Positions 1 through 7,685 of a stretch of 7,685 nucleotides of DNA are shown here, piece after piece. Location: NCBI GenBank assembly GCA_026991065.1, contig JALXCG010000168.1:1-7685 (forward strand), written 5' to 3'. Positions within the stretch are counted from its first letter, which is position 1. Each line of letters opens with the position of its first letter. Origin of the DNA: JALXCG01 sp026991065 [NCBI: Gemmatimonadota bacterium]. GTDB lineage: Bacteria; GCA-2686955. The notes beneath the pieces are model-generated. The model was not told where the DNA came from. It searched no databases and saw only the letters and a program-made list of their open reading frames with translations. Both the position numbers and the translations under genes were made by a program.

Positions 1-1747
1 GCAACCGATCGTGTCCCATCTGGCGTCGCAGATATCCGCCCAGGCGCTTGAGCGCCAAGCGTGGGTGGCTGCATCTGCCGTGCGACCAGCCACCGTCGCC
101 GACCACCAGGCCGGCGCAGCGCAGCCGCTCCAGGATCCTGTCCACGGTCGCCGGAGGGCGATTGGAAGCGGCCGCCAGAGCCGTGGCCGGGAACCGCGCG
201 GGAGCCAGGGCGAGAAACTCGAGGATCTCCCGCTCTTCTGCGCCGACGGTTGCAGCGCGCGCGCGGAGGTATGCCAGGAAATCGGCCGCCAACTCTCCCC
301 GAACACGCTCCGGCTGTCCCAGCAGGGCGATGAGATGTCGCGGGTTGCCGCCGCTGACTTCGCTCCAGAAGTCGTCCTCGACGCTGCCGCGGCGGGGGCC
401 GAGTTGATCGATCGCCAGCGCTCGCACAGCCTCTCTGTCGAGCGGTTCGAGGGTGAGGATCTGTGCTGTGGCACCGGCGACTGTTGGCGCAGCGCTCTTC
501 GAGGTCAGCAGGTGGTCGGTCACCAATACCAGGGGCAACTCGGCGGTTGCCGCCGCGCACTGGGTGATCACCTCCTCGGCGTCGGGGTGGCCGCTGCTCT
601 CCAAACCCAGCAGCACCGCTTCACCGGCACGGCCCCGCTCCTCGACGATGGCCAGAAGCTGGTCCATCGGATCGGCCATCGGCGCGACGTGATCGCCGGT
701 CTCCAGCGGCGCACCCAGGGCGGCCAGCGGCTGCGCGCCGGTCGCGCCGCCGTCGAGTCGGCACCAGTAGGCGAGGCCGTTCTCCTCCTGGGCGCTGAAG
801 ATCGCCTCGCGCAGCAGTCGGCTCTTGCCGCACCCGGGCGCCCCCTGAAGGAGTAAGGTGGTTCCGCGACCGCATCTGCCGGCCTCGCGCCGGGCCGACG
901 CAATCGTTGCCAGAAGCTTGTCGCGGCCCACAAAGGTGGCGTCCACCACCGGCGGCAGCGGGGGAGTGCCGGGCATCGCCTCGCGCGCCACTAGTGCCGT
1001 GGCGGGCCGCTGCGCGGGGTCGGGCATCAGCAGAGAGCAGAGCCAACTGCTCCAGCGCTCGCTCTCCGCGCCTTCAACAGAGCGTGCCACCGCCGTCGCT
1101 GCCCGGTTTCGAATCTCTTCCGCCTCTTCCAATTTCTCGCGGGCGATTCTCTGCCCGCCACGCTCGCGAAATGGCAGCGTTCCGGTGAGCAGATGGAGAC
1201 CGAGCAGACCGACAGAATAGAGATCGGTTCGGGCGTCGACCTCAGCGCCACGGAGCACTTCCGGCGCAACGTACGGCAGCGTACCGAGGATCTCCGTGGG
1301 GCGTTCGCCGACGCGCCGGCAGAGACCCAAGTCAACCAACTGCATGGCTCCATCCGCCGAGCGGATCAGATGCTCCGGCTTGAGATCAAGATGCACCCAC
1401 CCGTGTTGATGGAGTTGCGCCAGCACAGCCAAAAGGTCGCCCAGAATGCGACTCAAGTCCGCGGTGCTCTTGATCGCTCCCGGTTCCAGTGGTTGCCCTT
1501 CCGCCCAGGTTCGGGTCAGCGCGGCGCGCCCGGTGCGGGTGTGGCCGTAGGCACGCGGCGCCGGTAGCAACGCATGCCGCACCTCGCGCAGAATCGCGAA
1601 CTCATGAGCGATCGCGGAGTCGTGCTCAGCGCCCAGGCTGCTCTTCAGCGCCACGACCTCGCCGTTCGCGCGGTCCCGCACTCGCTCCAGCAGCGCCATG
1701 CCGCCGCTGCGCTGCCAGCCGAGATCCTCGAAGCGATCCATGCCCAT
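1..1747 (-). CDS. Protein kinase-like domain fused to AAA/STAND-type ATPase, cut by window edge
   Basis: The frame is open for 582 codons from the ATG at 1747 to the window edge with no stop, so the C-terminus is missing. Residues about 5-260 are a Hanks-type kinase fold: degenerate Gly loop RSGGMALLERV (13-23), VVALK with Lys 35, helix C Glu 49, catalytic loop HLDLKPEH (119-126) with Asp 121, VDLG with metal-binding Asp 139, GTLPYVAPE (155-163), DLYSVG with Asp 175 and Arg 247 near the domain end. Residues 272-276 (FVGRD) start an AAA_16-type ATPase with Walker A GAPGCGKS (302-309). No clear Walker B Asp is seen; the expected strand reads AVLLGLESS (377-385). Residues about 500-560 look like a winged-helix segment. 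The layout resembles PknK-type and other kinase-ATPase sensor proteins, which usually continue into TPR-like or regulatory domains. It follows the glycosyltransferase gene by 5 bases. Kinase-fold identity is sure; catalytic activity is not. Confidence 0.88.
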   Translation of the reverse strand, partial: MGMDRFEDLGWQRSGGMALLERVRDRANGEVVALKSSLGAEHDSAIAHEFAILREVRHALLPAPRAYGHTRTGRAALTRTWAEGQPLEPGAIKSTADLSRILGDLLAVLAQLHQHGWVHLDLKPEHLIRSADGAMQLVDLGLCRRVGERPTEILGTLPYVAPEVLRGAEVDARTDLYSVGLLGLHLLTGTLPFRERGGQRIAREKLEEAEEIRNRAATAVARSVEGAESERWSSWLCSLLMPDPAQRPATALVAREAMPGTPPLPPVVDATFVGRDKLLATIASARREAGRCGRGTTLLLQGAPGCGKSRLLREAIFSAQEENGLAYWCRLDGGATGAQPLAALGAPLETGDHVAPMADPMDQLLAIVEERGRAGEAVLLGLESSGHPDAEEVITQCAAATAELPLVLVTDHLLTSKSAAPTVAGATAQILTLEPLDREAVRALAIDQLGPRRGSVEDDFWSEVSGGNPRHLIALLGQPERVRGELAADFLAYLRARAATVGAEEREILEFLALAPARFPATALAAASNRPPATVDRILERLRCAGLVVGDGGWSHGRCSHPRLALKRLGGYLRRQMGHDRL

Positions 1748-1752
1748 GCGGC

Positions 1753-2928
1753 CTACCTCCCGCCCGGTGCCGCTGGAGCCATCCCGAGCCGGTTGCGGCG
1801 CTTGCCGGGGGCTTCCGTTGCGAGTACTTCCTCATAGAGCGACCGGGTTCGGTCCAACATAGCCTCCCGCGAGAACTCTTCTACTCCTTTTTGCGCTGCT
1901 TTTTCCATGGCATCCAAGTCGATCGCCGGCGAGAGCAACCCGACCACCTGGGCGGCGAGATCGGTGACGCTGCCCGGGCTGAAGGTCGCTCCACAGCGGC
2001 TCTGCGCGACCAGATCGGCGACGCCACTTCCGCCGGCACCGATCACGGGACGGCCACTGGCCAGAGCTTCCAGCGCAACGAGGCCGAATCCTTCGCTCGC
2101 TCCCGGCAGGATCACGCAATCCGTCGCCGCATAGAGTTCGTGCAGTCCGGCACCCGTCACCTCGCCCTGCCAGTGGATGGCCGCGCTGACGCCCGACTCG
2201 GCAGCCTGTCGCCGCAACCGAGCCTCCTCCGGTCCGTCGCCGGCAATCAGCAAGCGCAGGTTCGGTAGCTCCCGGCGAGCGAGCGCCAACGCCGGAAAAA
2301 GTAGTGCGACCTCTTTCTCCGGCGCCAGTCGTCCAACAAAGGCGATGGCTCGGGTCGCGGGGTTCAGGCCGAGGCGCGAGCGGAGCGCCGCGCGTTGCCG
2401 GGCGTTGATCCGCTTGAAGCGCGCCAGGTCGATGCCGTGGGGAATCAGTTCAACGTTGTGGACTCCCAGGCGTCGGCGCAGGCTCCGCCGCACCGCCGGG
2501 CTCGGCGCGATCCAGCGATCGGTGCGGAGCGCCAGCCAGCGATCCGGCAGAAAGTGCTTGTAGGGCCGTGGGCTCCAGAGGTTGTGCTGAGTGACGACGA
2601 GGCGCGGCGTGCCGCGCGCCCCCGCGGCGATCCGCCCCCACAGGCTGGCGGAGAAGAGGTGGGTGTGGAGCAGTGACGCCTTCTCCTCCGTGAGCCAGCG
2701 CCGAATCGAACGCACCGCGCCGCCGCCGATGCGGCCCTCCATGCCGAAGTCGACCACGGAAAACCCCTCTTTGCGCAGCCGTTCTCCAACAACTCCCCGG
2801 CGCCGCAGGCACCCCACCACGACCCGCCACGGCGGCGGCATCCCCGTGGCCAGCGCCTCCACATGGAACTGCGCGCCACCCAAATCCAGGTGGTCGATCA
2901 AGAGGGCCAGCGTGGTGGTGGATGACAT
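1753..2928 (-). CDS. GT4-type (GT-B fold) glycosyltransferase
   Basis: 391 residues with the two-domain layout of GT-B retaining glycosyltransferases. The N-terminal domain has the acceptor-side loop HLDLGGAQ (13-20), LLHTHLFSA (87-95) and TQHN (113-116). The C-terminal domain has PHGID (163-167), FVGRLAPEKEV (197-207), the strand LRLLIAGDGPEE (224-235) and the nucleotide-sugar site GASEGFGLVALEALASGRPV (276-295), including the E-x7-E pair Glu 279 and Glu 287. Such enzymes transfer a sugar from a nucleotide-sugar donor at the cytoplasmic face; the acceptor cannot be read from sequence. There is no signal peptide and no membrane segment. The ATG lies 3 bases after the MlaF stop with no good ribosome site, so it is probably translated by coupling. 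The last 20 or so residues are an Arg/Ala/Pro/Gly-rich tail. Its company suggests a lipid acceptor or glycolipid envelope product, which is inference. Confidence 0.93.
   Translation of the reverse strand: MSSTTTLALLIDHLDLGGAQFHVEALATGMPPPWRVVVGCLRRRGVVGERLRKEGFSVVDFGMEGRIGGGAVRSIRRWLTEEKASLLHTHLFSASLWGRIAAGARGTPRLVVTQHNLWSPRPYKHFLPDRWLALRTDRWIAPSPAVRRSLRRRLGVHNVELIPHGIDLARFKRINARQRAALRSRLGLNPATRAIAFVGRLAPEKEVALLFPALALARRELPNLRLLIAGDGPEEARLRRQAAESGVSAAIHWQGEVTGAGLHELYAATDCVILPGASEGFGLVALEALASGRPVIGAGGSGVADLVAQSRCGATFSPGSVTDLAAQVVGLLSPAIDLDAMEKAAQKGVEEFSREAMLDRTRSLYEEVLATEAPGKRRNRLGMAPAAPGGR
1756..1761 (-). promoter_or_regulatory. Ribosome binding site for the kinase-ATPase gene
   Basis: GGGAGG on the minus strand sits in the last codons of the glycosyltransferase gene, 8 bases before the ATG at 1747. 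It is among the best-placed Shine-Dalgarno sequences in the window and supports this start over the ATG two codons later. Confidence 0.75.
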
Positions 2929-2931
2929 GAA

Positions 2932-3684
2932 TCAGCGGTTGGGAAGAGGGGCATCGGGGGCAAAAAAGGCGCGTACCGCGGCCGAATCCGCTGCCGCGGC
3001 GTCGGCAACAGTGCCATCGAAAGAGACCCCTCCCCGCTCCAGAAAGAGGATGCGATCGGCGATGCGGCGAATGCTCGCGATTTCGTGCGTAACCACCACC
3101 AGGGTGGTCCCGAGTTGCCGCCGCAGGTCGAGCAGGAGCAGGTCGAGTTGGCGTGCGGTAACCGGGTCCAGGCCGGCTGACGGCTCGTCGCAAACCAGGA
3201 GCGGCGGGTCCAGAATCAAGGCGCGTGCCAACGCGGCGCGTTTGCGCATGCCGCCGGAAAGCTCGGCCGGGAGGTAGTTCCCGGCCGCCTCCAGGCCCAC
3301 TTGGGAGAGCCGTTGCTGAACCAGAGTCCGAACCACGGCCGGTGGCAGAGAGGTGTGCATCTCGAGTGGCATCGCCACGTTCTCGGCAACGCTCAGAGAA
3401 CCGAGCAGGGCACCGTTTTGAAACAGAAACCCGACCCCCAATCGGGTTCGGTTCAGGGCCTCTTCGTCCAGCTTGGTGATCTCCTGCCCGCGAATGGAGA
3501 TGCGCCCGGCACTGGGCTCGGACAGGCGCAGCATGTGCTTGATCAGGGTCGACTTGCCGGAGCCGCTGCCGCCCAGAATGACACGGATCTCGCCGGGGAA
3601 GACCTGAAACGAGACATCGTGTAGAACCCGGCGCTCGCCGTAGCGGGCTTCCAGGTTTTCGACGCGTAGAATCGGCTCCGGCAT
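2932..3684 (-). CDS. mlaF: MlaF-type ABC transporter ATP-binding protein
   Basis: 250 residues, the normal size for the family. All ATPase motifs are present and intact: Walker A GGSGSGKST (38-46), Q-loop Gln 89 in LFQNGALLGSLSV, signature LSGGM (142-146), Walker B LLVCDEP (162-168) with catalytic Glu 167, D-loop SAGLDP (169-174) and H-loop His 200 in VVTHE. The wording FLFQNGALLGSLSVAENV and LSGGMRKRAALARAL is characteristic of MlaF/Mkl-type ATPases rather than other ABC importers. It powers the MlaE permease at the inner membrane. The frame stays open upstream to 3888, but that extension lies inside the MlaE gene; the start at 3684 begins right at the conserved PILRVENLEARYG strand and follows AGAGG (3689-3693) by 4 bases. 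The stop is 3 bases before the glycosyltransferase start. Confidence 0.97.
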   Translation of the reverse strand: MPEPILRVENLEARYGERRVLHDVSFQVFPGEIRVILGGSGSGKSTLIKHMLRLSEPSAGRISIRGQEITKLDEEALNRTRLGVGFLFQNGALLGSLSVAENVAMPLEMHTSLPPAVVRTLVQQRLSQVGLEAAGNYLPAELSGGMRKRAALARALILDPPLLVCDEPSAGLDPVTARQLDLLLLDLRRQLGTTLVVVTHEIASIRRIADRILFLERGGVSFDGTVADAAAADSAAVRAFFAPDAPLPNR

Positions 3685-3692
3685 GCTGCCTC

Positions 3693-4844
3693 TCAATTCA
3701 GATAGAAGAGGAGTCCCGCCACGGCATCTGCCACGATGACGGCAAAGATCGACGAGACCACCGCTGCTGTCGTGGCGCGGCCCACGGCCTGGGCGCCTCC
3801 GCGCGCGCGGAACCCATGAAAGCTCCCGAGGAGTGTGATCAGCCAGGCGAAAAACACGCTCTTGATCAAACTGGCCAATAGATCCCAAGTGGTAACCGCG
3901 GAGGCCAGTTCCACGAGAAAGGCCTGCGGCGCAAGGTCCAGGTAGAACACCGCCGCCAGCAGGCCGCCGGCAGTGCCGATCGCGATCGCCAGCAGCGCCA
4001 GCAAGGGCGTGACCAGAGTCATGGCCAAAAAGCGTGGGACGACGACGAAACGCACCGGATGCAGGCCGAGGCTGCGCAGCGCGTCCGTCTCCTCCGTCAC
4101 CACCATGGTGGCGATCTCGGCGGCGACCGAGGAGCCGCTGCGCCCCGCCAGAACAATCGCCGTCATCAAGGCGCCCATCTCGCGCGCCATGGCGATTCCA
4201 ATCAGGTCGGCAACAAAGATGTTGGCGCCAAAACGTCGCAGCTGCGCGGCCGACTGCAGTGCCATCACCAACCCGATCAAGAAGGCAATCAGGAGCACCA
4301 CGCCGAGCGCGTCGACCCCCATCGAGACCGCTGCCGAAGTGACGGCACCGCGCCGCGAGCGCCCTTTTCCGAGCAGCGCGAGCCCACTGAAGTAAAAGAC
4401 ATTGGCGGTGAGAACCAGGGCCTCCAGCACGGCTTCTCCGGCCGCCAGTCCGGCGCTTCCGGCGGCCGCGAAGAGATCCCCAATCCGCTGCAGCGGTGTG
4501 CTCGCAGCGGGGAGATCGGTGGGTGTCTCGGCGACCCTGCCCGCGGCTTCGAGGGAGGGCGCGAACTCCAGCCAGCGGGTGCGCAGCTCCGCCGGAAGCG
4601 CGCAGAAATCAGGGGCCGTGATCGAGGTTCCGAGCTGTTTGGCCAGCAGCAGCAACCAGGCGATCCCGGCGCTGTCCAACTCCTGCACTGCGCTGAGGTC
4701 GAGCGCGGTAGCCTTCCGCGTGGCGCGCCGGCGCCAGGCGCGGTCGAATGTGCCCACCGTGTTGCGATCGATTCGCCCCGATGGCTTCACTCGTGTCCCA
4801 TCAACGACCAGGTGGGCCGGAGAGTGCCCGCGGTCAAAAGACAT
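3693..4844 (-). CDS. mlaE: MlaE-family lipid ABC transporter permease with fused N-terminal STAS domain
   Basis: 383 residues. Residues about 10-105 form a STAS/MlaB-like domain: a strand (HLVVDGTRVKPSGRID), a helix, the strand ATALDLSAV (45-53) and the loop DSAG at 57-60 before a hydrophobic helix. Residues about 135-383 are the MlaE permease (PF02405), with several hydrophobic segments and the family core at 221-260: REMGALMTA, VLAGRSGSS and VTEETDALRSLG, close to the canonical 'E-hG-P-L-hT...LAGR-x-G...AAE-h-x-TM-x-VTE-x-x-DAL'. A later GG-x-x-x-VGRATT (349-359) also fits. MlaE dimers in the inner membrane pass phospholipid to or from the MCE ring; a STAS subunit (MlaB in E. coli) stabilises the ATPase. 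Fusion here explains why there is no separate mlaB. The ATG overlaps the barrel gene by 11 bases and has GAGG (4852-4855) 7 bases upstream. The ATPase gene follows after 8 bases. Confidence 0.95.
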   Translation of the reverse strand: MSFDRGHSPAHLVVDGTRVKPSGRIDRNTVGTFDRAWRRRATRKATALDLSAVQELDSAGIAWLLLLAKQLGTSITAPDFCALPAELRTRWLEFAPSLEAAGRVAETPTDLPAASTPLQRIGDLFAAAGSAGLAAGEAVLEALVLTANVFYFSGLALLGKGRSRRGAVTSAAVSMGVDALGVVLLIAFLIGLVMALQSAAQLRRFGANIFVADLIGIAMAREMGALMTAIVLAGRSGSSVAAEIATMVVTEETDALRSLGLHPVRFVVVPRFLAMTLVTPLLALLAIAIGTAGGLLAAVFYLDLAPQAFLVELASAVTTWDLLASLIKSVFFAWLITLLGSFHGFRARGGAQAVGRATTAAVVSSIFAVIVADAVAGLLFYLN

Positions 4845-6399
4845 GGGTCAGCCTCAGGCGCGCTGAACCCTCGACCAGAGCCTCCTCCGCCACTGCGGGA
4901 TCATTGAGATAGCGCAGCGAGTAGTAGAGCGAGATGCTCTTGGTCAGACGGAAATTGATCGTCCCCTCCGCGTCCACAATGTTCTTGCCTCCGCCCTGCG
5001 GGAGCAGAAAATCGAGATCAGCACCGAGAAGGATCCGGCGCCCCAGCCGTCCCGAAAAAACCACCGATTCTTCGATTCCGTAAAGGCTGCTCGAGTGCTG
5101 TTCCATATAGAAGTTGGCGTGCGCGGGGTCGGTCAGCAAGGTGTCGGCACCTACCGCCGCGAGGAGTTCGTCAGTGGGAGTGTCGGCGGCGAAGACTGAA
5201 CTGTTGATGGTCTGGCGGAAACCATAGCCTGTGCGCAGGAAAAGGCTGGAGCGCTCGGTCTTCATGGCCACCAGATTGATGCCCACGCCCTCCTGAAGAG
5301 TCAGCGGCAGGCCTCCCGGAGAGAGACGCACTTCATCGGCAACGCCGTAGTCTTTCACCCGATTGTCCCGATCGATCTTCATGAACTCGACCGGTGAATC
5401 CAGGTAGACGCGTCCCGGAAGCGCCTTGTTTTCGACGAAGAGGCGCGCGTACAGACCCACGCGCCCACCCAGCTTGCGGACGCCCACGGCGCGTGCCAGG
5501 AGGCGATCGGTGAGGATGCGCCAGCCTACGTCTTGCACATGAGTCAGGCCCTCCTCCAGAAGAGAGCGGCAGGAGAGTGAATAGTGCTCTGAATCACTGG
5601 AGAAACGCAGCTCACCGGTCCCGCTGAACGAAAAGTCCTTGCGGGATATCCCTTCGGCGCCGCCGGTCTGATGGTCGAGCAGGAGATTGGCGTGGGTGGC
5701 GGCGTAGAGCACGCCGGCTTTGCCGCGCTGTTCACCCGGCAACAGTTCGGTGCCGGCGCCCAACAGATTGCCCGTCACCGGGTCGATGACCAGGCTCAGA
5801 TGGGTCAGCTCACCGGGCAGAAGGCGTACCGTCGTGAAGTTGACAATGGTGCTGTAATCTTCGCCCACGGGGATGATTTTGTAGAGCCCGGGCCGCAGCA
5901 GCCAGGTGATCTGATGCTCGCCGAGAACCTCTTCCGCGGAGCGACCGACGCCAAACGTCGAGTAGCTTGGCAACTGCACTACTTCGTAGTTGTAGCCGAT
6001 TGTTGTTCTGGTTTCGTCGATACCGCGGATCACCAATCCCGACCAATCGGCGTCGACCACCGTGGCATTCCCCGCGCGCACCTCGACAGTACGCTCCAGT
6101 CGCTGTGTGAGGTCACCGGAGCCCCAGCGCACGGTGTAGGTTCCGGGAGTGAGGACCACGCTGTGCCCCATGCGCTGCACTTTGAGCATCTGCGTGCCCT
6201 GATAGACGGAATACGCGGGTTCGTAGTCGGGGTCGGTCATTGCCGGAAGGAAAAGTGTGCCTTTTTCCCACGGAATGACTTGGGCTTCACGGGCCAGCTG
6301 CGTGAGGGGATCCGGCATCTCCCAGCTTGCGGGACCGGCAGAAGGAGTCGCCAGCAGGAGTCCGAGAAGGATTGTGCCGGGAACAGTCATGGAGATCAT
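4834..6399 (-). CDS. Exported protein: two beta-rich modules plus predicted outer-membrane beta-barrel
   Basis: 521 residues from the chosen ATG. Residues 1-24 form a signal peptide (hydrophobic core ILLGLLLA, possible cleavage after GPA at 22-24), unusual in having no Lys or Arg before the core. Residues about 45-215 are beta-rich and contain two similar modules with VVLTPGTYTV (81-90) and WLLRPGLYKI (166-175), resembling small surface or periplasmic beta-sandwich folds. Residues about 230-521 show alternating polar/hydrophobic strands, many Tyr/Ser/Arg and turn residues, and the chain ends in the strand ARLRLTHVF with a terminal Phe. That is the pattern of the C-terminal BAM signal of outer-membrane barrels. 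I do not recognise a named family; DUF481- or DUF3078-like barrels are the nearest type in appearance. It begins with an ATGA overlap with the lipoprotein gene and ends 11 bases inside the MlaE gene. Its place inside an MCE operon suggests it is the outer-membrane end of the lipid path. The barrel call is moderately sure; the function is inference. Confidence 0.75.
   Translation of the reverse strand: MISMTVPGTILLGLLLATPSAGPASWEMPDPLTQLAREAQVIPWEKGTLFLPAMTDPDYEPAYSVYQGTQMLKVQRMGHSVVLTPGTYTVRWGSGDLTQRLERTVEVRAGNATVVDADWSGLVIRGIDETRTTIGYNYEVVQLPSYSTFGVGRSAEEVLGEHQITWLLRPGLYKIIPVGEDYSTIVNFTTVRLLPGELTHLSLVIDPVTGNLLGAGTELLPGEQRGKAGVLYAATHANLLLDHQTGGAEGISRKDFSFSGTGELRFSSDSEHYSLSCRSLLEEGLTHVQDVGWRILTDRLLARAVGVRKLGGRVGLYARLFVENKALPGRVYLDSPVEFMKIDRDNRVKDYGVADEVRLSPGGLPLTLQEGVGINLVAMKTERSSLFLRTGYGFRQTINSSVFAADTPTDELLAAVGADTLLTDPAHANFYMEQHSSSLYGIEESVVFSGRLGRRILLGADLDFLLPQGGGKNIVDAEGTINFRLTKSISLYYSLRYLNDPAVAEEALVEGSARLRLTHVF
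5755..6159 (-). repeat. Diverged tandem repeat of a beta module within the barrel protein
   Basis: Two segments of the protein, residues 81-128 (6159-6016) and 166-215 (5904-5755), align by eye. Both have a hydrophobic pair, Leu, Thr/Arg, Pro-Gly-x-Tyr and an alternating strand, then a Gly, then T-V-x-(V/L), then a Gly, then a hydrophobic strand ending near a Gly. The period is about 85 residues. The similarity is in protein pattern only and is not evident at DNA level. Confidence 0.45.
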
Positions 6400-7142
6400 G
6401 ATCCCTCCTCCACCGGTGCAGTGCGTCGCGACGTGGGCAATGGGATCAGGCGATAGCCCTCCTGCGGGGTCCCGGTCGAATCCGCCGCGGCCGGCGCAAT
6501 CCACGGCATCTGCGCCGGAATGTCGAAGGCGGACCAGATTTTTGCAATGAAGATTGCCGTCTCCTCCTCCAGGATCGTGGAAATCGTCTGCGCGAAAAAA
6601 GTCATTGAACCACTCTGTAGATGAACCCTGCGGTCAAATGCGTGGCGCGCCAGAAGTGCGCCGTCGGTGCGGCGCTGCAAACGCATCTCCATGGCGAGGT
6701 GGGCTCCCCCGTAGTCGCCATTCTCGAAGCGCTCAAGGGCGCTCAATTCGCCACGGATCTCGAGATCGGGTTGCTCATCGATGAACTGTCGCCGCACCTC
6801 CTGAAAGATCCCGGCGGCGGAGAGGTGGCGGGCAACGACGTCACTCACCATGGTGCGCGGGGGGATCGCCCACTGGTGCAGGCGATAGTAGTTCAGCCGG
6901 TTTGGTGAATAGCGGTAGACAATGCGGGTTCGATCAAGAACGCGCGGGAAATGGAAATCCCGCACCCGCACGCGGTAGGGGAGCGTCTTGACACTGTCCG
7001 GAACAATCGGCACCAGGGTTGCTTCGTGGTCGATCAGATAGAGCGATGGCGATGCCTGGTGTGAGGAGAAACCGGCGCACCCACTGATCGCCACAACACC
7101 CAGGGCCAGTACCATGACGAGACTGGAGAATTGCTTAATCAT
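6396..7142 (-). CDS. ABC-type transport auxiliary lipoprotein (PqiC/ABC_trans_aux family)
   Basis: This is a 248-residue predicted lipoprotein. It has a short basic start (MIKQ), a hydrophobic core and the lipobox ISGC with the lipidated Cys at residue 22; the next residue is Ala, not Asp, which favours the outer membrane. The body carries the family signature: a region near residues 58-80 containing RTRIVYRYSPN, then tyrosines (NYYRLHQWAIPP, about 83-94), then a helix ending in SAAGIFQEV (about 107-115). This matches the 'rIvYr...yy...W..pP...l...L..sg.F..v' pattern of the PF03886 family. E. coli PqiC is an outer-membrane lipoprotein that docks the PqiB MCE needle. The last 30 or so residues (218-248) are a Pro/Ala/Thr-rich tail with no clear fold. 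The ATG directly follows the stop of the MCE gene (TAGATG), and the 3' end overlaps the next start by ATGA. The ribosome site (GGGAAG, 7154-7159) is weak and distant, so translation probably depends on coupling. Confidence 0.9.
   Translation of the reverse strand: MIKQFSSLVMVLALGVVAISGCAGFSSHQASPSLYLIDHEATLVPIVPDSVKTLPYRVRVRDFHFPRVLDRTRIVYRYSPNRLNYYRLHQWAIPPRTMVSDVVARHLSAAGIFQEVRRQFIDEQPDLEIRGELSALERFENGDYGGAHLAMEMRLQRRTDGALLARHAFDRRVHLQSGSMTFFAQTISTILEEETAIFIAKIWSAFDIPAQMPWIAPAAADSTGTPQEGYRLIPLPTSRRTAPVEEGS
6403..6410 (-). promoter_or_regulatory. Ribosome binding site for the barrel gene
   Basis: GAGGAGGG on the minus strand lies inside the end of the lipoprotein gene. It is 3 bases from the ATG at 6399 and 12 bases from a second in-frame ATG at 6390. 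It decides against the much longer upstream open frame, whose extra 35 residues look unlike a signal peptide. Either ATG is possible; I chose 6399 because it forms the ATGA overlap. Confidence 0.65.
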
Positions 7143-7685
7143 CTACTGATCCGCTTCCCATGGAGCGTCGATCTCCTGCTCACGGCCGCCTCGCAGGATG
7201 CGCGAGGGGTCTTCGGAGATGCGACGGGAGAACTCGTTCATGTGATCCGCGCTCTCACGCAGACTTTCGGTTGCCCGGAGAATGTCCTCGCGGCTTTGCA
7301 AGAGGAGTAGGTCCATGTGCGTGAATGCAGCGCCCGCGTCGACCAGGGTCTTTTTTGCAGCCAGCCCGAGGGAATCGAGATGGGCGGCACGCAGATCGCT
7401 GCTGACCGCTGCCAAGTTGTCCAGCGTCGCGGCGAGCGATGGGTTGGTGAGGAGCGCATCGGCGTGCGCCAGAAGTTCCGCGGTCTGTTGTACCGCTTGG
7501 TCGGAGTGGCCGGTTAACTCGTCGACGTGCCCAAGGACCAGGCTCAGGCTATCGGTCAGGGTTTGGATGTTGCTGAGAAGGGTGGTCAGATGGTGGCGGT
7601 TTTTGGTGTCGACCACCCCGGCCAAGCCCTCAAGAACACGGTCGAGACGGTCCGCGATGTTCTCCGCGCGCTCGCCGATCTCGTC
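7143..7685 (-). CDS. MCE-family (MlaD/PqiB-type) transport protein, C-terminal helical part, cut by window edge
   Basis: The frame is open from the right window edge to a TAG stop, giving 180 visible residues; the start and the MCE beta-barrel domain lie outside the window. What is visible is almost entirely predicted helix with repeating Leu/Ile/Val/Ala heptad-like spacing (visible residues 1-155), followed by DPSRILRGG at 159-167. A conserved 'dPs-x-LLrG' close to the C-terminus is typical of MlaD/PqiB/Mce-type proteins. In that family the MCE domains form hexameric rings in the periplasm, and long C-terminal helices can bundle into a hollow needle carrying lipids between membranes. The stop codon directly abuts the start of the lipoprotein gene. 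The assignment rests on this tail motif and on the PqiC-, MlaE- and MlaF-type genes downstream. A methyl-accepting or other coiled-coil protein is the alternative for the tail alone, but the context makes it unlikely. Confidence 0.85.
   Translation of the reverse strand, partial: DEIGERAENIADRLDRVLEGLAGVVDTKNRHHLTTLLSNIQTLTDSLSLVLGHVDELTGHSDQAVQQTAELLAHADALLTNPSLAATLDNLAAVSSDLRAAHLDSLGLAAKKTLVDAGAAFTHMDLLLLQSREDILRATESLRESADHMNEFSRRISEDPSRILRGGREQEIDAPWEADQ

What the first reader, a model, noticed from the sequence alone, without database searches (positions are those of the whole stretch)
1..7685. MCE lipid transporter operon extended by a glycosyltransferase and a kinase-ATPase
The order MCE protein, PqiC-like lipoprotein, barrel protein, STAS-MlaE, MlaF, GT4 glycosyltransferase, kinase-ATPase is continuous with no gap above 8 bases. 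The known Mla, Pqi and Let systems, and mycobacterial Mce operons, are not known to me to carry both a glycosyltransferase and a Ser/Thr kinase-like protein in the same coupled unit. It could be a regulated lipid or glycolipid transport system.
Basis: partly seen in the sequence, partly recalled or inferred. Interest (0 to 1): 0.65.

Follow-up and report, generated by a model that had tools for sequence, protein, structure and literature searches.

The report
Lipid transporter with its own barrel

Summary
The gene order and tight spacing are real. The window is one whole contig of a draft genome. Its MCE gene is cut; the MCE domain lies on another contig that overlaps by exactly 127 bases.

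The proposed extension by a glycosyltransferase and a kinase is not conserved. The only other held genome of the phylum keeps MCE > PqiC-like lipoprotein > barrel > STAS-MlaE > MlaF (58-68% identical), then has a convergent radical-SAM gene; its kinase homologue (43%) lies on another contig. Of 78 related loci with at least 1 kb visible past the operon, none has a kinase; five have a different GT4-domain gene, not adjacent.

The substance is the barrel protein: a predicted all-beta N-terminal part plus a DUF3078-like, probably outer-membrane barrel. It directly neighbours MCE-system genes in 134 of 137 genomes with a strong match; the three exceptions match only the barrel half. In 91 genomes it is one reading frame with the PqiC-like lipoprotein.

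Best reading: a trans-envelope lipid ABC transporter like Brucella Mpc, with its own outer-membrane barrel, supplied in trans because the MCE protein has none. New variant of a known kind. Substrate, direction and the barrel's exact role are inferred. Glycosyltransferase and kinase are probably co-transcribed here, function unproven.

The parts
7143..7685 (-). C-terminal 180 residues of the MCE protein (helix-like, no barrel); MCE domain and membrane anchor lie on contig C292
   Evidence: exact 127-base overlap with C292; MlaD domain PF02470 1.8e-19 on C292; joined protein 61% identical to that of G001; helical amphipathicity z 5.4, beta z -0.9 after residue 120
6396..7142 (-). PqiC-like outer-membrane lipoprotein (PF03886); lipobox ISGC read by eye
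   Evidence: 8e-17; 64% identical in G001
4834..6399 (-). Barrel protein, 521 aa, probable signal peptide (by eye); steady partner of the MCE genes
   Evidence: 67% identical in G001; direct neighbour of MCE-system genes in 134 of 137 genomes
5725..6336 (-). N-terminal part of the barrel protein, predicted all-beta, two sandwich-like repeats (by eye), transthyretin-like arrangement (weak)
   Evidence: AlphaFold2 pLDDT 61.6; best Z 8.6 over residues 91-201 in a second look, a common arrangement
4834..5712 (-). C-terminal DUF3078-like, probably outer-membrane, beta-barrel domain
   Evidence: profile comparison with a DUF3078 protein: probability 97, E 1.2e-10 over 249 columns; beta amphipathicity z 3.0
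3693..4844 (-). STAS-MlaE fusion: MlaB-like domain plus inner-membrane permease
   Evidence: PF13466 residues 22-72, PF02405 172-376
2932..3684 (-). MlaF-like ATPase; start at 3684 preferred to the 318-aa frame listed from 3888
   Evidence: NF008809 7.4e-51, below its cut-off
1753..2928 (-). GT4 glycosyltransferase; directly behind MlaF only in this genome among the loci judged
   Evidence: best-scoring match in G001 29% identical
2..1747 (-). N-terminal part of a Ser/Thr kinase - AAA_16 protein, probably a sigma-54-type regulator, cut by the contig end

Best explanation
A five-gene trans-envelope lipid ABC transporter of the MCE superfamily. MlaF-like ATPases and STAS-MlaE permeases in the inner membrane power a ring of a long single-MCE-domain protein whose helices form a periplasmic tube. 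The tube docks on a ring of PqiC-like lipoprotein at the outer membrane. A dedicated barrel protein, held to that ring by its periplasmic N-terminal part, forms the outer-membrane end; it would anchor the tube and let lipid pass to or from the outer membrane. The MCE protein has no barrel of its own, so the barrel is supplied in trans, and in many genomes it is covalently joined to the lipoprotein, so there is one barrel for each ring subunit. Shown here: gene content, order, conservation, fusion, domain matches. Inferred from related systems: stoichiometry, docking, phospholipid as substrate, direction. The glycosyltransferase and kinase genes behind it are a lineage-specific addition, probably co-transcribed, not parts of the machine.
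For: Order MCE > PqiC > barrel > STAS-MlaE > MlaF kept in G001 at 58-68% identity. Barrel at E<=1e-3 in 14 of 336 genomes and at E<=1e-15 in 13 of 13, 2 of 9 and 121 of 385 (a sample rich in relatives of one genome). Of 137 distinct genomes in the union, 134 have MCE, PqiC, MlaE or MlaF within 500 bases of the barrel or in its frame. Lipoprotein and barrel in one frame in 90 of 118 loci, 91 of 137 genomes, one of them a one-contig genome (L092). Control: 0 of 11 loci with MlaE from other lineages (L036-L046) have the barrel. The barrel half aligns with a DUF3078 protein end to end. The MCE protein beyond its domain looks helical, not beta. Published: PqiC is an octameric ring at the outer membrane (PMC10897342, start of abstract and passages); Brucella Mpc, with STAS-MlaE, MlaF, long MCE protein and PqiC-like MpcA, forms a complex by pull-down (PMC12436622, passages). 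Kinase in 0 and GT4 domain in 5 of 78 loci downstream.
Against: No experiment. The AlphaFold2 model of the whole barrel protein failed (pLDDT 37.8 with 3 sequences), so the barrel rests on profile similarity, amphipathicity (z 3.0 and 2.6) and C-terminal strands; only 72 of 137 complete C termini end in F or Y. The window's barrel protein reaches no Pfam cut-off. L082 has barrel, MlaE and MlaF but no MCE or PqiC gene beside them; L090 and L091 show no PqiC gene; L086 shows no MlaF gene behind MlaE. Many genomes with MlaE lack the barrel (46 of 60 with MlaE; 14 of 336 with barrel), so MCE systems in general do not need it. The genomes are not independent: 91 fusions come largely from one sample around G141.
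Confidence: 0.78

Rival explanations
1. One reading: a seven-gene regulated glycolipid transport system in which the GT4 enzyme makes or modifies the cargo and the kinase regulator controls the operon.
For: Gaps of 3 and 5 bases and a good ribosome site (GGGAGGTAG, by eye) before the kinase; GC3 of the two genes (0.79) is like that of MlaE (0.80). Some GT4 enzymes make glycolipids (weak matches below cut-off).
Against: Pair absent from all 78 judged loci, G001 among them; the kinase homologue in G001 lies on another contig; many members of both families in the genome (15 GT matches; 8 kinase matches; the window's own included); no sigma-54 site beyond chance at the operon start.
Confidence: 0.1
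2. The barrel protein is an anchor only: a ring of small barrels fixes the lipoprotein ring in the outer membrane, and lipid moves between ring and membrane leaflet without passing through any barrel. (A sub-case of the best explanation, about the barrel's role.)
For: Fusion gives one barrel per lipoprotein subunit, which fits several narrow barrels better than one wide pore; the in-cis barrel of V. parvula MlaD is judged too narrow for lipid by its authors (PMC10665443, Discussion part 1).
Against: No structure; strand number and pore width unknown.
Confidence: 0.45
3. The barrel protein is a separate outer-membrane protein (porin-like) that merely shares the operon.
For: Barrels like its C-terminal half occur away from MCE genes (G000 C597, G001 C91, G272 C98, G135, G094, G220, G232).
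Against: Neighbourhood kept in 134 of 137 genomes and one frame with the lipoprotein in 91.
Confidence: 0.07

Closest known systems
Mpc system of Brucella abortus (MpcEFDA; PMC12436622, passages seen)
   Same: STAS domain fused to MlaE, MlaF, long single-MCE protein with helical C-terminus, PqiC-like lipoprotein
   Different: Described as four genes without a barrel gene; here a barrel gene sits between lipoprotein and permease, or is fused to the lipoprotein
Minimal Mla system of Veillonella parvula (PMC10665443; sections 8, 9 and first part of Discussion read)
   Same: MlaE, MlaF, long MCE protein; an outer-membrane barrel belongs to the bridge
   Different: There the barrel is the C-terminal domain of MlaD; here it is a separate or lipoprotein-fused protein (the two barrels were not compared). 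The paper reports no barrel in MlaD of the FCB and PVC groups
Pqi system of E. coli (PMC10897342, start of abstract and passages seen)
   Same: PqiC-type lipoprotein at the outer-membrane end of an MCE tube
   Different: PqiB has three MCE domains; PqiA in place of an ABC permease (recalled); no barrel gene among the three
E. coli Mla (MlaFEDB-MlaC-MlaA-OmpC)
   Same: ABC core MlaE/MlaF, STAS domain
   Different: No MlaA or MlaC gene in the operon; not sought genome-wide
DUF3078 proteins (PF11276)
   Same: C-terminal domain of the barrel protein aligns with one over its whole length
   Different: That one (L106) lacks the N-terminal part and no MCE gene was seen near it (by eye)

Membership tests
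MCE lipid ABC transporter | MCE (MlaD) domain protein | tested here: met
   PF02470 1.8e-19 on contig C292, joined to the window by a 127-base exact overlap; 3.7e-16 in G001
MCE lipid ABC transporter | MlaE-type permease and MlaF-type ATPase | tested here: met
   PF02405 7e-69, TIGR00056 above cut-off, PF00005 7.4e-31
Mpc (Mla-Pqi chimera) | STAS-MlaE fusion, MlaF, long MCE protein, PqiC-like lipoprotein in one operon | tested here: met
Mpc (Mla-Pqi chimera) | Four gene products only, no barrel gene | tested here: not met
   fifth core gene (barrel) beside the system in 134 of 137 genomes
V. parvula-type MlaEFD bridge | C-terminal barrel within the MCE protein | tested here: not met
   Joined MCE protein is 317 aa; in G001 only the MCE domain (39-117) matches Pfam; the rest has helical (z 5.4, 6.3) and no beta amphipathicity (z -0.9, -1.0); not modelled
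Pqi | PqiA and three-MCE PqiB | tested here: not met
   no such frame in the window; one MCE match in the genome and one in the G001 protein
E. coli Mla | MlaA and MlaC | not tested
   not among the window's frames; genome-wide search not done
DUF3078 (PF11276) | Pfam match above cut-off | tested here: inconclusive
   window protein has no match; 5 of 11 members at E<=1, best 7.7e-7; profile comparison 97%
Outer-membrane beta-barrel | Membrane barrel fold | tested here: inconclusive
   AlphaFold2 failed; amphipathicity z 3.0/2.6, 72 of 137 C termini F or Y
Ser/Thr kinase - sigma-54 regulator | Pkinase, AAA_16, TPR, GAF, sigma-54, Fis domains in one protein | tested here: inconclusive
   first two present in the window; the rest seen only in the G001 homologue and in part on unlinked contig C782

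The most novel reading that the evidence does not exclude
A self-contained lipid bridge whose outer-membrane end is a barrel supplied in trans. The MCE protein carries no barrel; a co-encoded barrel protein, covalently joined to the PqiC-like ring lipoprotein in 91 genomes, takes the place of MlaA-OmpC and of the in-cis barrel of Veillonella MlaD, giving a ring of barrels round the tube. It would be one of the 'as yet unidentified proteins' that the Veillonella authors suppose for barrel-less MlaD (PMC10665443, Discussion part 1).
Probability: 0.6. Interest if true: 0.65.

Novelty: new variant of a known kind. Interest (0 to 1): 0.5.

Why it matters
How lipids cross the envelope in diderm bacteria that lack MlaA and MlaC is an open question. 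A steady barrel partner, fused to the ring lipoprotein in many genomes, names the likely outer-membrane end of the bridge in a broad set of little-known lineages and gives a one-chain target (lipoprotein plus barrel) for structure work. It also corrects a tempting but unsupported story about a glycosyltransferase and a kinase.

Tried and rejected
Seven-gene conserved unit: rejected. Sigma-54 site as a link to the kinase regulator: 7 sites in the window against a mean of 3.65 (10 of 200 shuffles reached 7), all inside genes; 2 on C292 against 2.93, one of them (2 mismatches) just ahead of the MCE gene on the other strand. Continuation of the kinase past the window: no overlapping contig; contig C782 carries a GAF-sigma54-Fis end 71% identical to the G001 protein, but no exact overlap, so unlinked. 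AlphaFold2 of the whole barrel protein: failed. Fold of the N-terminal part: transthyretin-like and pilin rows at Z 8.6 and below, which the tool warns may be only a common arrangement; Foldseek rows have low TM-scores. Solved structures by sequence: 0 matches at E<=1.

Papers: in the listings I saw no title or abstract start that describes a separate barrel encoded with MCE genes. Some lists were capped (30 of 174, 10 of 50, 10 of 43, 25 of 28), the library lacks most subscription journals, and I opened only three papers, in part. So novelty is not proved.

GT4 genes near other loci: five (L229, L235, L237, L238, L242), 24-33% identical to the window's GT over partial stretches, two on the opposite strand, each with one or two genes of 154-165 aa between.

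Counts: 137 genomes is the union, recounted. Left out before the count: weak C-terminal-only hits (G135, G336, G337, G338, E 1e-4 to 1e-7) and second, C-terminal-only hits in G000, G001 and G272. The 78 judged loci come from 143 loci and are 77 genomes; the other 65 show too little beyond the operon. Most flanks and one search are 1.5 kb.
Full report
What is there. The window is the whole of contig C168 of a draft genome of 902 contigs, 84% complete. Seven frames run on the minus strand with gaps of 0, -4, -11, 8, 3 and 5 bases. The MCE gene is cut by the contig end: contig C292 ends in the first part of the gene with the MCE domain, and its last 127 bases equal the window's end. Upstream on C292, divergent, is a glgC-like gene (named by eye), then a calcineurin-like phosphatase; relatives of both (73 and 51% identical) flank the operon in the sister genome G001.

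The extension. G001 is the only other held genome of the phylum. Its contig has the length and the match of NYZA01000186.1, 'Gemmatimonadetes bacterium isolate ARS67', so I take it to be that record. It keeps the five genes (MCE 61, PqiC 64, barrel 67, MlaE 58, MlaF 68% identical), but next to MlaF stands a convergent radical-SAM gene. Its kinase homologue, 43% identical over the first part, lies on another contig and is a 1,683-aa protein with Pkinase, TPR, GAF, sigma-54 and Fis domains; a GT4 gene beside it is divergent and 31% identical to the window's over 225 residues. The window's glycosyltransferase has no close relative in G001 (best-scoring match 29%). Of 143 related loci, 78 (77 genomes) show at least 1 kb beyond the last core gene (median 3.2 kb): kinase 0, GT4 domain 5, at 439-944 bases with other genes between and 24-33% identical to the window's. 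So the two genes are a local addition as far as these genomes tell.

The barrel protein. A two-row profile found it in 14 of 336 genomes, and all 14 have it next to MCE or MlaE genes. With an 11-row profile it is in 2 of 2 genomes of the window's phylum; in 5 of 8 of the phylum of G272, whose contig matches a record named Candidatus Eisenbacteria, but over full length only in G272; in 2 of 9, 13 of 13 and 121 of 385 genomes chosen around G141. The surroundings of the strong hits were read. Of 137 distinct genomes, 134 have a gene of the MCE system within 500 bases of the barrel or in its frame; G094, G220 and G232 do not, and they match only the C-terminal half. The commonest orders in 143 loci are MCE > PqiC+barrel in one frame > MlaE > MlaF (77) and MCE > PqiC > barrel > MlaE > MlaF (27); many of the rest are cut by the end of contig or stretch. 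One frame for lipoprotein and barrel was seen in 90 of 118 loci and 91 of 137 genomes. In L092 the lipoprotein part covers residues 13-207 (1.7e-37) and the barrel part 273-728 (3e-71), in a genome of one contig. I recall that this contig's length, 2,246,820 bases, is that of Candidatus Cloacimonas acidaminovorans; not verified. A simple lipobox pattern is met by 67 of 90 fused proteins, 29 of 39 separate PqiC proteins and 1 of 44 separate barrel proteins with a start inside the locus (the pattern and length searched differ slightly between the three). As a control, 11 loci with MlaE from other lineages show MCE and MlaF genes but no barrel. These genomes are not independent samples; those cluster round G141.

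Domains. The N-terminal part is predicted all-beta (pLDDT 61.6), best matches transthyretin-like at Z 8.6 or less, which shows only a common arrangement. Some relatives (L085, L086) have an added repeat (by eye). The C-terminal part aligns end to end with a DUF3078 protein (probability 97, E 1.2e-10), shows beta amphipathicity above shuffles (z 3.0 and 2.6), and ends in F or Y in 72 of 137 proteins. The full-length model failed. I therefore call it a probable outer-membrane barrel, not a shown one. The MCE protein past residue 120 shows helical amphipathicity (z 5.4; 6.3 in G001) and none of beta kind.

Mechanism. Gene content matches Brucella Mpc (STAS-MlaE, MlaF, long MCE protein, PqiC-like lipoprotein; PMC12436622, passages), where tagged MpcA pulled down the other three proteins. 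PqiC of E. coli is an octameric ring (PMC10897342, title, start of abstract and passages). In V. parvula the MCE protein itself ends in an outer-membrane barrel, and that paper finds no such barrel in MlaD of the FCB and PVC groups (PMC10665443, sections 8, 9, Discussion part 1). NCBI places Gemmatimonadota in the FCB group and the Eisenbacteria among unplaced candidate phyla; to which phylum GTDB assigns the window I do not know. The simplest reading is that here the barrel comes from a separate gene and joins the ring lipoprotein; fusion means one barrel per ring subunit, which fits an anchoring ring of barrels at least as well as one pore. Substrate (phospholipid) and direction are taken from the related systems.

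Verdict. Eight paper searches (some lists capped) showed me no prior description in the library held.

Noticed in passing
L092:8774-10963 and 90 loci: PqiC-like lipoprotein and barrel protein in one reading frame.
   Followed up: yes
L033 (contig C292) 3822-5877 and L034 9557-11658: glgC-like and calcineurin-like phosphatase genes flank the operon in both genomes of the phylum; in some relatives of G141 a different gene of about 450 aa (looks like a UTP-glucose-1-phosphate uridylyltransferase, by eye) sits upstream.
   Followed up: no
L082:10201-11991: A 596-aa highly charged frame without any Pfam match takes the place of MCE and PqiC genes upstream of barrel-MlaE-MlaF.
   Followed up: partly
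L090 and L091: Two MCE-type genes before the barrel and no PqiC match.
   Followed up: no
L103:3-713 (G000 C597) and L104:1-649 (G001 C91): A second barrel like the C-terminal half, cut by contig ends; no MCE gene seen on these short contigs.
   Followed up: partly
L136 (G000 C782) 1931-3370: GAF - sigma-54 - Fis end 71% identical to the G001 kinase protein; may be the far end of the window's kinase gene, with the middle unassembled.
   Followed up: partly
G000, 42 matches: The genome holds many sigma-54 activator domains, several in open frames of about 1,650-1,720 aa with a kinase part.
   Followed up: no
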